Shown piece by piece: positions 18,270 through 30,595 of a stretch of 64,000 nucleotides of DNA. This stretch comes from Hymenobacter sp. IS2118 (lineage in GTDB: Bacteria; Bacteroidota; Bacteroidia; Cytophagales; Hymenobacteraceae): the NCBI RefSeq assembly GCF_000715495.1, contig NZ_JNLX01000085.1, forward strand, positions 1 to 64,000, written 5' to 3'. The translations under genes were made by a program, and so were the position numbers. How positions within the stretch are numbered: the stretch's first letter is position 1; each line of letters begins with the position of its first letter. A model generated the notes under the pieces. The model saw only the letters and a program-made list of their open reading frames with translations, was not told where the DNA came from and did not search any database.

Positions 18270-19919
18270 TTGAAACGCCGCGACTTTGTGGGACTTTCCG
18301 GCCTGGCGGCTGGTGCCCTGTTTCTCCCCGCCTTCCCAAGTCTGGGGGGCACTTCCGTCGACCCGTCCCGTTTGCTGGAAGGCATCGACCCGGCCGTGAA
18401 CAAGCGCATGGCCGATGCCGCGCTCAACGCCGCCAAGACCGCCGGGGCCACCTACGCCGACGTGCGCATAGGCCGCTACCTCAACCAAAGCATCTTCACC
18501 CGCGAAAAGCAAGTGCAGAACATCGCCAGCGGCGAGAGCTTTGGGGCCGGCGTGCGGGTGCTGGCCAACGGCACCTGGGGCTTTGCCGCTACCAACACCG
18601 TGACCGAAGCCGGCCTGGCCAAAGCCGCCCATCTGGCCGTGGCCATTGCCAAAGCCAACGCCAAAGTGCAGAAAGAGAAGGTGCAGCTGGCTCCGGTGAA
18701 AGGCTTCGGCGAAGTGAGTTGGAAAACGCCCATTCAGCAGAACGCTTTTGAGGTGCCGGTGGCCCAGAAAGTGGAGTTGCTGCTGGCCGCCAACGCCAAA
18801 GCCACCGACAACGGCGCGTCGTTCGTGAACTCCTCGCTGTTTCAAATCAACGAGCAGAAGTACTTCGCCAGCACCGACGGCTCCTACATCGACCAGGACG
18901 TGCACCGCATCTGGCCCACGTTCAGCGTCACGGGCATCGACCGGGCCAGCGGCAAGTTCCGCACCCGCGATGCCTTGAGCGCCCCCATGGGCCTGGGCTA
19001 CGAGTACCTCACGCCCAAGGCCGTCGACAAAATTGCCGGGCCGGCCGGCACGGGCCTCATCGGCTACCGCAACAGCTACGACATGCTGGAGGACGCCGCC
19101 CTGGCCGGCAAGCAGGCCAAGCAGAAACTGACCGCCAAGTCGGTGACGCCCGGCAAGTACGACCTCGTGCTCGACCCCAACCACCTGGGCCTCACCATCC
19201 ACGAGAGCGTGGGCCACCCCACTGAGCTCGACCGCGTACTGGGCTACGAAGCCAACTACGCCGGCACCAGCTTTGCTACGCTGGACTGGAAAGCCAAGAA
19301 AATTCCCTTTGGCTCGAAGCTCGTCAACATTGTGGCCGACAAGCTGCAGCCCGGTTCCCTGGGCGCGGTGGGCTATGATGACGAAGGCGTGAAGGCCAAG
19401 CGCTGGGACCTCATCAAGGAAGGCATGCTGGTGGACTACCAGAAAATCCGGGACCAGGCCCACATCGTGGGCCAGAACGAGTCGGATGGCTGCTGCTACG
19501 CCGATTCCTGGGACGCGGTGCAATTCCAGCGCATGCCCAACGTGAGCCTGCAGCCCGGCACCGCTAAAATGAGCGTCGATGACATGGTAAAAAACGTGGA
19601 CAAGGGCGTCTACATTGCCGGCCGCGGCTCCTACTCTATTGACCAGCAGCGCTACAACTTCCAGTTTGGCGGGCAGGTGTTCTACGCCATCGAGAAGGGC
19701 AAAATCACGGAGATGATTGAGGACGTGGCTTACCAGGCCAACACCCAGGAATTCTGGAACTCCTGCTCGGCCATCTGCGACGAGTCGGACTACCGCCTTT
19801 TTGGCTCTTTCTTCGACGGCAAGGGCCAGCCCTCGCAGGTATCGGCCGTGAGCCACGGCTCGGCCACCACGCGCTTCAATGGCGTGAACGTCATCAACAC
19901 CGCCCGCAAAATCGGGTAG
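18270..19919 (+). CDS. tldD: Tat-exported TldD-type metalloprotease, copy 1
   Basis: A 549-residue TldD-family protein. The TTG at 18270 is chosen because it gives a leader (LKRRDFVGLSGLAAGALFLP) that aligns residue for residue with the ATG-started leaders of copies 2 and 3. The leader has a twin-arginine motif (RRDFV) followed by a short hydrophobic stretch. The zinc-protease motif HESVGH (HExxxH) starts at His311, and a C-terminal Cys-containing segment (NSCSAICDESDYRLFGSFF) sits where family members place the third metal ligand. Known TldD/TldE complexes degrade unfolded or small peptides such as CcdA and trim microcin B17 leaders in the cytoplasm. A Tat leader implies export here. It is followed by tldE copy 1 after a family A repeat. 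Confidence 0.9.
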   Translation: MKRRDFVGLSGLAAGALFLPAFPSLGGTSVDPSRLLEGIDPAVNKRMADAALNAAKTAGATYADVRIGRYLNQSIFTREKQVQNIASGESFGAGVRVLANGTWGFAATNTVTEAGLAKAAHLAVAIAKANAKVQKEKVQLAPVKGFGEVSWKTPIQQNAFEVPVAQKVELLLAANAKATDNGASFVNSSLFQINEQKYFASTDGSYIDQDVHRIWPTFSVTGIDRASGKFRTRDALSAPMGLGYEYLTPKAVDKIAGPAGTGLIGYRNSYDMLEDAALAGKQAKQKLTAKSVTPGKYDLVLDPNHLGLTIHESVGHPTELDRVLGYEANYAGTSFATLDWKAKKIPFGSKLVNIVADKLQPGSLGAVGYDDEGVKAKRWDLIKEGMLVDYQKIRDQAHIVGQNESDGCCYADSWDAVQFQRMPNVSLQPGTAKMSVDDMVKNVDKGVYIAGRGSYSIDQQRYNFQFGGQVFYAIEKGKITEMIEDVAYQANTQEFWNSCSAICDESDYRLFGSFFDGKGQPSQVSAVSHGSATTRFNGVNVINTARKIG

Positions 19920-19936
19920 CGAATATCCAGAAGAAC

Positions 19937-20027
19937 GTCATGCTGAGCTTGCCGAAGCATCTCTACCGCTTCGTTGCAGTAGTAATTCAACGAAGCGGTA
20001 GAGATGCTTCGGCAAGCTCAGCATGAC
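19937..20027. repeat. Family A palindrome, copy 5
   Basis: Almost perfect arms GTCATGCTGAGCTTGCCGAA and TTCGGCAAGCTCAGCATGAC, with inner CTCTACCGCTTCGTTG and CAACGAAGCGGTAGAG. It fills most of the spacer between tldD and tldE copy 1. The loop is nearly the same as in copy 4. Confidence 0.93.
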
Positions 20028-29160: not shown

Positions 29161-29269
29161 TTTTAATTAGCTGTTAGCTAAAAGCTATTAGCTGTTAGCT
29201 TTCCCTTGGGAAGGCGCCGATACAGCGAATAAGCTAACAGCTAATAGCTCTCAGCTAACAGCTAAAAAC
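29161..29269. repeat. Family F inverted repeat between tldD3 and tldE3
   Basis: Same structure as 23127-23235: TTAGCTGTTAGC-type arms around CCTTGGGAAGGCGCCGATAC. The shared centre shows that the spacer was duplicated with the genes. Confidence 0.88.
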
Positions 29270-30595
29270 ATGGCCATTCTCTCCAAAGACGACGCCCAGG
29301 CGTTGCTAAAAAAAGTTCTCAGCTACAGCACCGCCGACGAGTGCGAAGCCTCCCTTAATGGGCGCACGTCCGGCAACATCCGCTATGCCCGCAACAGCGT
29401 GAGCACGGCCGGCGCCCAGGATTCCGTGTCGCTGGCCGTCGAAAGTCGCTTCGGCAAGCGCAGCGGTATTGCCACCTGCAACGAATTCGACGAAGCGACT
29501 TTGCGCCGCTGCGTGCAGCGGGCCGAGGAAATTGCCCGCCTCGCCCCCGAAAGCCCGGAGTACGTGGCCCTGCTCGGCCCCCAAACCTACCTGAGCCCGC
29601 CCTCCACGGCCCCCACCCTGCTCACGGCCGCCACCCGCGCCCAGGCGGCGGCCGACAGCATGACGCTCTGCGCCGCCAAGAACCTGACGTCGGCGGGCTT
29701 CCTCGATGGCGGCACCCGGTTCGTGGCCAAGCGCAATTCCAAGGGCCTCGAAGCCTACCAGCAATCCACCAACACCGACTTTTCGGTGACGGTGCGCACC
29801 GCCGACGGCCGCGGCTCGGGCTACGCCATTGCCGACGTGACGGACCCCGCCAAGCTCAACGCCAAAGCCCTCACCCAGCGCGCCGCCGACAAAGCTCTGG
29901 GCTCGGTGAATGCCAAGGCCATCGAGCCGGGCAAGTACACCGTGATTCTGGAGCCAGCCGCCCTGATGGCCGGCGACGACCTTTCGCTGCTGGGCGGGCT
30001 GATATTTGGGATGGGCGCCCGTGAGGCCGACGAAGGCCGCAGCTTCCTAAGCAAAAAGGGCGGCGGCAACCGCAAGGGCGAAAAGCTGTTCGACGACCGG
30101 ATAACCATCTATTCCGACCCGCTGAACGCCGAGGTGCCCGGCAATGCCTTCGACGGCGACGGCCTGCCTACCAAACGCCAGACCTGGGTTGAGAAAGGCG
30201 TAGTGAAAGACTTGTTTTACAGCCGCTTCTGGGCCGAAAAAAACAAAGTAGCCGCCACCGCCTACCCCAATGGCTTCATCATGGCCGGGGGCACACAAAG
30301 CACGGCCGAACTAATTAAGGGCACGGCCAAAGGCATTCTGGTGACGCGCCTGTGGTACATCCGCGAGGTGGACCCGCAAACGCTGCTCTACACCGGCCTC
30401 ACGCGCGACGGAACGTTCTACATTGAGAACGGGAAAATCAAATTCCCCATCAAGAACCTGCGCTTCAACGAGAGCCCCATCATCATGCTCAACAACATTG
30501 AGGCCATCGGCAAGCCGCAACGCCTGGCCGGCTGCCTGATACCGCCGCTCAAAATCCGCGACTTCACCTTCACCAGTCTCTCGGACGCTATCTAG
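29270..30595 (+). CDS. tldE: TldE/PmbA-type partner protein, copy 3
   Basis: A 441-residue TldE-family protein starting MAILSKDDAQALLKKVLSY, without export signal or HExxxH. It is the most divergent of the three TldE copies. The segment after LLGPQTYL is different (SPPSTAPTLLTAATRAQAAA) and FLDGGTRFVAKRNSKGLEAY replaces the DSAGFVAKRN form. C-terminal blocks (GTAKGILVTRLWYIREVDPQ, FRFNESPIIMLNN-like LRFNESPIIMLNN) are intact. Presumed partner of TldD copy 3. A palindrome at 30610-30686 follows, shared with the convergent barrel gene. Confidence 0.9.
   Translation: MAILSKDDAQALLKKVLSYSTADECEASLNGRTSGNIRYARNSVSTAGAQDSVSLAVESRFGKRSGIATCNEFDEATLRRCVQRAEEIARLAPESPEYVALLGPQTYLSPPSTAPTLLTAATRAQAAADSMTLCAAKNLTSAGFLDGGTRFVAKRNSKGLEAYQQSTNTDFSVTVRTADGRGSGYAIADVTDPAKLNAKALTQRAADKALGSVNAKAIEPGKYTVILEPAALMAGDDLSLLGGLIFGMGAREADEGRSFLSKKGGGNRKGEKLFDDRITIYSDPLNAEVPGNAFDGDGLPTKRQTWVEKGVVKDLFYSRFWAEKNKVAATAYPNGFIMAGGTQSTAELIKGTAKGILVTRLWYIREVDPQTLLYTGLTRDGTFYIENGKIKFPIKNLRFNESPIIMLNNIEAIGKPQRLAGCLIPPLKIRDFTFTSLSDAI

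What the first reader, a model, noticed from the sequence alone, without database searches (positions are those of the whole stretch)
18270..30595. Three tandem pairs of Tat-exported TldD with TldE, plus regulatory-domain proteins
Seen: three tldD genes of exactly 549 codons, each followed by a tldE-like gene (439-444 codons). Every TldD starts with a K-R-R-D-F-V twin-arginine leader and keeps HESVGH. Two secreted carboxypeptidase-regulatory-domain paralogues sit between pairs 2 and 3. Known: TldD/TldE is normally a single cytoplasmic heterodimer acting on peptides (microcin B17, CcdA). Inference: this is an expanded, exported peptide-processing system, perhaps for secreted peptides or surface proteins. 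It is the best candidate here for an uncharacterised system.
Basis: partly seen in the sequence, partly recalled or inferred. Interest (0 to 1): 0.78.

Follow-up and report, generated by a model that had tools for sequence, protein, structure and literature searches.

The report
Exported TldD proteases with MoxR machine
A Hymenobacter bacterium carries three tandem copies of a two-part peptide-cutting enzyme (TldD/TldE) whose catalytic half starts with a predicted export signal, and in genomes sampled across its phylum this enzyme type occurs together with one ATPase-and-membrane-protein gene set, so the two likely form an uncharacterised peptide-processing machine of the cell envelope.

Summary
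In detail: three tldD genes (549 codons, Tat-like leader, HESVGH), each followed by a leaderless tldE (439/444/441 codons). A search found no other PF01523 genes in the genome.

The frame needs correcting. Such leaders are usual in this TldD type: 208 of 214, against 1 of 206 TldEs. Hymenobacter loci hold one to three pairs. The carboxypeptidase-regulatory genes appear in 9 of 68 loci.

What was missed is the partner. The tld genes sit beside DUF4159-MoxR-DUF58-BatA-X36956-X39222. X36956 has strong matches in 32 of 392 Bacteroidota genomes; all 32 also hold this TldD type, some of them unlinked. E. coli's Cys metal ligand reads Asp in 209 of 214.

Best reading: TldD is likely exported by Tat carrying TldE, and works in the periplasm with a MoxR-driven membrane complex. 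Export, pairing and substrates are untested. One paper mentions a Stenotrophomonas operon with two TldDs and a MoxR, left uncharacterised (PMC7688217). New variant of a known kind.

The parts
18270..19919 (+). TldD copy 1 (549 aa, TTG start); leader 18270-18359, HESVGH 19200-19217, DGKGQ with the predicted Asp ligand 19815-19829
20065..21384 (+). TldE copy 1 (439 aa), no leader, no HExxxH
21477..23126 (+). TldD copy 2 (549 aa); leader 21477-21566, HESVGH 22410-22427, DGKGQ 23025-23039
23236..24570 (+). TldE copy 2 (444 aa), no leader, no HExxxH
27511..29160 (+). TldD copy 3 (549 aa); leader 27511-27600, HESVGH 28444-28461, DGKGQ 29059-29073
29270..30595 (+). TldE copy 3 (441 aa), no leader, no HExxxH
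31573..32196 (+). DUF4159 protein (207 aa, GTG start), leaderless here; Tat-like leader in 2 of 20 relatives outside Hymenobacter
32288..33265 (+). MoxR-type AAA+ ATPase (325 aa)
   Evidence: PF07726 E 8.7e-62; linkage
33397..34272 (+). DUF58 protein (291 aa)
   Evidence: PF01882 E 3e-38
35325..36959 (+). BatA-type protein with N-terminal double membrane anchor (544 aa)
   Evidence: PF07584 and TIGR02226 above cut-off; hydrophobic stretches
36956..39217 (+). X36956, membrane protein of 753 aa, distant DUF4175-like; genome-wide companion of this TldD type
39222..41024 (+). X39222, membrane protein of 600 aa with a predicted ThuA/GATase1-like fold and Ig-like parts
24736..27422 (+). Two CarboxypepD_reg paralogues (24736-25962, 26226-27422); probably NOT part of the conserved system
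   Evidence: present in 9 of 68 Hymenobacter loci

Best explanation
The three TldD/TldE pairs are likely an envelope peptidase: each TldD carries a predicted twin-arginine leader and would be folded with its metal in the cytoplasm, bind a leaderless TldE, be exported by Tat with TldE as a passenger, and in the periplasm trim unfolded peptides from their ends, working with the membrane complex made by the neighbouring MoxR gene set. Shown by sequence: the genes, the leaders, the HExxxH motif, the Asp in place of Cys, the leaderless TldEs, and the co-occurrence and linkage with the MoxR set. Inferred: use of Tat, carriage of TldE, the chamber and end-trimming (from the E. coli enzyme), and joint action with the MoxR set. 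Inferred division of labour: MoxR and DUF58 act from the cytoplasm, BatA, X36956 and X39222 span the inner membrane with large outer parts. The substrates are unknown; clearance or trimming of unfolded envelope peptides is my guess.
For: Leader in 208 of 214 window-type TldDs against 1 of 206 TldEs; genome has a TatC. HExxxH and Asp kept. Co-occurrence: with 33 core genomes defined by at least 60% identity, X36956 is present in 32 and in none of the other 359 (Fisher p 3.3e-46; five genera with both states, all concordant). Linkage within the fetched stretch in 25 of 33 core genomes and 9 families, in two gene orders; where unlinked, X36956 keeps BatA in 7 of 8 and X39222 in 7 of 8 stretches. 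DUF4159 has its own Tat-like leader in 2 of 20 loci, which puts a partner in the periplasm there. An independent mention: a Stenotrophomonas operon with two TldDs and a MoxR-like ATPase (PMC7688217, passages).
Against: The curated leader model stays below its cut-off. In some relatives the second Arg is Lys: 10 of the 54 passing leaders outside Hymenobacter. If all 41 genomes with strong TldD matches are taken instead of the 33 core ones, X36956 is in 32 of 41: eight divergent TldDs (f12, f37, f47) have neither X36956 nor any module gene in the stretches fetched, so the peptidase can do without the set. The core was defined after I had seen the matches. In 8 of 33 core genomes no linkage was seen (two of these, G268 and G276, were not fetched around tldD). 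TldD outnumbers TldE in 11 of 38 loci, against strict one-to-one pairs. DUF4159 and MoxR-type genes are common outside this set (DUF4159 in 293 of 392 genomes; four strong MoxR genes in this genome). Tat leaders also occur with Cys ligands (4 f47 proteins; Bacteroidales-type), so Asp is no mark of export by itself.
Confidence: 0.55

Rival explanations
1. TldD is exported alone and works as a homodimer or as a pair of different TldDs; TldE stays in the cytoplasm, as a keeper of unexported TldD.
For: TldE has no leader. TldD outnumbers TldE in 11 of 38 loci. PMC5810440 cites a report of an active Sulfolobus TldD homodimer.
Against: In the loci outside Hymenobacter only L169 and L177 lack a neighbouring TldE (36 of 38 have one), and for L169's genome one lies on another contig. 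The E. coli TldD needs TldE for activity (PMC5810440).
Confidence: 0.2
2. The leader is an uncleaved membrane anchor or is not used; TldD/TldE acts at the cytoplasmic face or in the cytoplasm, as in E. coli.
For: TIGR01409 below its cut-off; no obvious cleavage site was tested; TldE is leaderless.
Against: RR/RK-x-F plus an uncharged hydrophobic stretch is kept across 10 families and other phyla, while TldE never gains it but for one script call. Named Myxococcota-type relatives begin with RR followed by a lipobox-like LGAC (P0313), which fits an exported lipoprotein.
Confidence: 0.13
3. The system matures a secreted peptide product (RiPP type), as TldD/TldE does for microcin B17, and the CarboxypepD_reg proteins or other neighbours take part.
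For: TldD/TldE removes leaders of several RiPPs (PMC10885120, passages). Two secreted neighbours lie between pairs 2 and 3.
Against: The neighbours are in 9 of 68 loci. I noticed no conserved small precursor gene, but did not search for one systematically. The conserved partner is a MoxR membrane set, not biosynthesis genes.
Confidence: 0.08
4. The co-occurrence is a passenger effect: tld and the MoxR set spread and were lost as one block without working together.
For: Most pairs are linked (25 of 33), so joint transfer and loss would keep them together.
Against: In several core genomes the two lie on different contigs or 120-540 kb apart and are still both present; two gene orders exist.
Confidence: 0.07

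Closest known systems
E. coli TldD/TldE (PmbA), MEROPS M103, structure 5nj5 (PMC5810440)
   Same: Same three domains, HExxxH, TldD followed by a TldE without the motif; best PDB sequence match E 1.8e-15.
   Different: Predicted Tat leader; Asp where E. coli has Cys454; three tandem pairs; MoxR gene set as companion. The E. coli gene has no leader in the alignment.
Actinomycetota TldD of the 40%-identity type (Mycobacterium ulcerans plasmid, Nonomuraea)
   Same: Closest match outside Bacteroidota in the plasmid collection, HESIGH, followed by a TldE.
   Different: No leader found, Cys in the CGK motif.
MoxR-DUF58-BatA (Bat, aerotolerance) operon, e.g. Riemerella (PMC11834572, passages)
   Same: MoxR AAA+, DUF58 and a BatA-type two-anchor protein.
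   Different: Here joined to TldD/TldE, DUF4159, X36956 and X39222; the other Bat proteins were not identified in the window neighbours scanned.
Uncharacterised Stenotrophomonas maltophilia operon NIPOLPBK_01784-01792 (PMC7688217, passages)
   Same: Two TldD-family proteins, one MoxR-like ATPase, a membrane protein, a putative protease and three hypotheticals in one operon.
   Different: Only the text was seen; leaders, ligand and relation to X36956/X39222 were not checked.

Membership tests
TldD/TldE (M103) family | PmbA_TldD domains 1-3 | tested here: met
   All six proteins above Pfam cut-offs; NCBIfam equivalog models match far below their cut-offs, so they are family members but not the curated E. 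coli or archaeal equivalogs
TldD/TldE (M103) family | HExxxH in TldD, absent in TldE | tested here: met
TldD/TldE (M103) family | Cys as third metal ligand (E. coli Cys454) | tested here: not met
   Asp-Gly-Lys in place of Cys-Gly-Lys. MAFFT shifts the E. coli Cys by a gap; the assignment rests on the motif and on relatives with CGK in the same column. PMC5810440 states that Asp seems to substitute in some members, so this does not exclude membership
TldD/TldE (M103) family | Peptidase activity of the heterodimer | not testable with these tools
   needs purified protein
Tat substrates | Twin arginine, then an uncharged hydrophobic stretch at the N-terminus | tested here: met
Tat substrates | TIGR01409 above cut-off | tested here: not met
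   13.7 and 13.1 bits against 16.7; copy 3 not listed
Tat substrates | Tat-dependent export | not testable with these tools
   TatC gene present
Tat hitchhiker pair (concept recalled) | Only one partner has a leader | tested here: met
   208 of 214 TldD, 1 of 206 TldE
Tat hitchhiker pair (concept recalled) | Partners bind before export | not testable with these tools
   E. coli heterodimer known (PMC5810440)
MoxR-DUF58-BatA (Bat) operon | MoxR, DUF58 and two-anchor BatA genes together | tested here: met
MoxR-DUF58-BatA (Bat) operon | Further Bat proteins (VWA, TPR) | tested here: inconclusive
   none named among the neighbours scanned; X36956 and X39222 have no Pfam family
DUF4175 (for X36956) | PF13779 above cut-off | tested here: not met
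   not listed at E <= 10; only its 1167-aa paralogue matches DUF4175 (E 3.7e-14), and X36956 matches that paralogue at E 7.1e-8
GATase1/ThuA-like fold (for X39222) | Fold of residues about 246-455 | tested here: met
GATase1/ThuA-like fold (for X39222) | Catalytic Cys/His | tested here: not met
   no Cys or His among invariant or nearly invariant columns of 16 sequences

The most novel reading that the evidence does not exclude
A protease machine spanning the inner membrane: the MoxR/DUF58 ATPase in the cytoplasm drives BatA, X36956 and X39222 to pull or unfold envelope polypeptides and feed them into Tat-delivered TldD/TldE chambers in the periplasm, where there is no ATP. The Cys-to-Asp swap would make the metal site proof against oxidation there, and the TldD copies would serve different clients.
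Probability: 0.2. Interest if true: 0.88.

Novelty: new variant of a known kind. Interest (0 to 1): 0.62.

Why it matters
TldD/TldE is known as a cytoplasmic trimmer of unfolded peptides, and MoxR ATPases are widespread with mostly unknown clients. A tight genome-wide tie between an exported TldD type and one MoxR membrane set gives both a testable partner. It would also be a case of Tat export of a metalloprotease with a passenger subunit and a changed metal ligand.

Tried and rejected
Asp ligand as a mark of export: rejected as a rule. All Asp-type TldDs seen have or likely have leaders, but four f47 proteins and most Bacteroidales-type TldDs have leaders with Cys.

CarboxypepD_reg proteins as part of the system: rejected (9 of 68 loci). 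The OMP (57 of 68) and PAP2 (19 of 68) neighbours were seen in Hymenobacter only.

Bacteroidota-type promoter scan (pattern recalled): one match in the window, at 2678, none upstream of the tld genes. Walker A by the plain regex was not found in MoxR; its sequence reads GVPGLAKT, which I recall as the MoxR form.

X36956 by fold: only weak Ig-like partial matches (TMq 0.15 or less in the rows shown; model mean pLDDT 78.7, pTM 0.47). Foldseek on the whole of X39222 gave low TM-scores; the ThuA/GATase1 reading comes.

Literature: 'TldD' with 'twin-arginine' gave one paper, unrelated on its passages; 'DUF4159' with 'MoxR' none; 'MoxR' with 'TldD' three, of which I read passages of one and saw the other two in the listing only. 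Further searches. Only open-licence papers are held; a 2022 review of TldD/TldE (Vobruba et al.) was seen only in a reference list.

Checking the Stenotrophomonas operon itself: not done; no handle to that class was available.
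Full report
What is there. The window is from Hymenobacter. Three tldD genes of 549 codons and three tldE genes of 439, 444 and 441 codons alternate from 18270 to 30595, with two CarboxypepD_reg genes between pairs 2 and 3. The first tldD starts with TTG. The genome search lists six PF01523 matches, all of them these genes, and one TatC. Copies are 76-83% (TldD) and 70-81% (TldE) identical; dN/dS against orthologues of three other species is 0.024-0.152 for all six.

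Leaders. A script rule (R-R/K-x-hydrophobic, start codon close upstream, then 13 or more uncharged residues with a hydrophobic core) passes 154 of 156 window-type TldDs in 68 Hymenobacter-type loci and 54 of 58 in other Bacteroidota, against 1 of 206 TldEs and 54 of 800 other ORFs of 350 aa or more, real and spurious. The two Hymenobacter misses are reading frames open far upstream; the four others hold R-R/K-x-F but a charged residue cuts the stretch, and a looser rule passes all 58. The curated model TIGR01409 stays below its cut-off. Among 62 of 392 sampled Bacteroidota genomes with a TldD match, 41 have the window type, 12 a more E. coli-like type (leader in 10 of 12 by the looser rule, 6 of 12 by the strict one) and 9 a lone divergent type (0 of 9).

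Beyond the phylum. Three protein searches each listed the best 120 of 8000 scored, 338 distinct proteins. Ten under 480 aa were dropped; of 328, 300 pass a leader rule and 326 have Asp in the GK motif, the other 2 unresolved. Many of the 28 without a leader begin just after the place where relatives have it. Named sources include Haliangium ochraceum, Kofleriaceae, Pyrinomonadaceae and Kapabacteria. These were chosen by likeness to Asp-type queries, so the Asp count there is partly circular.

Metal site. E. coli TldD binds its metal by two His of HExxxH and Cys454, and the authors note that Asp seems to replace Cys in some members, e.g. Gemmatimonas (PMC5810440, passages and Discussion). Here Cys-Gly-Lys reads Asp-Gly-Lys in 209 of 214 window-type TldDs; 4 have Cys and 1 was unresolved. 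MAFFT puts a gap beside the E. coli Cys, so the assignment rests on the motif and on relatives with CGK in the same column. On a quick tree of 97 rows (15 of the 68 Hymenobacter loci given; SH-aLRT only), rooted on two leaderless Cys-type Actinomycetota proteins, the f47 group (leader, Cys) branches first and the Asp types later. That order suggests leader first, Asp later; the root is distant and I treat this as a suggestion.

Copy number. Of 68 loci, 20 hold three pairs, 29 two pairs, 6 one pair, and 13 have other arrangements with more TldDs than neighbouring TldEs or extra pieces (some stretches are cut by contig ends). The Hymenobacter TldDs form one clade, so these duplications happened inside the group; other families have their own sets. 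Outside Hymenobacter TldD outnumbers TldE in 11 of 38 loci.

The partner. Downstream lie DUF4159, MoxR (PF07726 E 8.7e-62), DUF58 (E 3e-38), a BatA-type two-anchor protein, X36956 and X39222. In 68 Hymenobacter-type loci DUF4159 is in 68, MoxR and DUF58 in 62; in the other six they were not seen in the stretch held. In 30 core-type loci outside them (two from Hymenobacter relatives, L143 and L144), 23 hold two or more module genes; in 8 loci of divergent TldDs (f12, f37, f47) none does. The tld genes lie before DUF4159 in some families and after X39222 in others.

Co-occurrence. X36956 matches 43 of 392 genomes at E <= 1e-5; 32 strongly (223 bits or more) and 11 only weakly, mostly to long DUF4175-like proteins. 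All 32 lie among the 41 genomes with strong TldD matches. Splitting off eight divergent TldDs (55% identity or less), which I did after seeing the lists, leaves 33 core genomes, 32 with X36956 and one without (G237, 95% complete); none of the other 359 has it (Fisher p 3.3e-46, not corrected for relatedness). Five genera among those I labelled hold genomes with and without the pair, and all agree. Linkage was seen in 25 of 33. In eight further stretches around X36956, it keeps BatA in 7 and X39222 in 7. DUF4159 alone is no marker (293 of 392 genomes).

Reading. TldD likely goes out folded through Tat with TldE bound, and the pair works in the periplasm beside a MoxR-driven membrane complex. 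Steps shown: gene content, motifs, leaders, co-occurrence. Steps inferred: export, carriage, activity, joint action, substrates. The one earlier mention found is an uncharacterised Stenotrophomonas operon with two TldDs and a MoxR-like ATPase, lower in biofilm cells (PMC7688217, passages).

Noticed in passing
L109 (Parabacteroides distasonis plasmid record), 2240-3772: An E. coli-like TldD (HEAIGH, Cys ligand) with a Tat-like leader that ends in a lipobox-like LGSC, beside a sulfatase-maturation gene: perhaps an exported lipoprotein.
   Followed up: partly
L107 (Pseudomonas aeruginosa plasmid record), about 2165-3787: A TldD reading frame (HESIGH, CGK, no leader) with no feature listed in the collection's gene table, between an oxidoreductase gene and an annotated TldD-related gene, with mercury-resistance genes upstream.
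   Followed up: no
L175, L176, L178, L179 (f47): TldDs with a Tat-like leader but HESCGH and a Cys ligand, the first branch on the tree: possible intermediates between leaderless Cys and exported Asp types.
   Followed up: partly
L194-L202: Nine lone TldD-like genes without a leader; no TldE was found in the short stretches held.
   Followed up: no
L156 and L159: HExxxH variants HESVAH and HESSGH in some TldD copies; the metal-binding letters stay.
   Followed up: no
window 41318-43828 (-): An 836-aa protein with TIG domains and a Por_Secre_tail (type IX secretion) domain next to the module.
   Followed up: no
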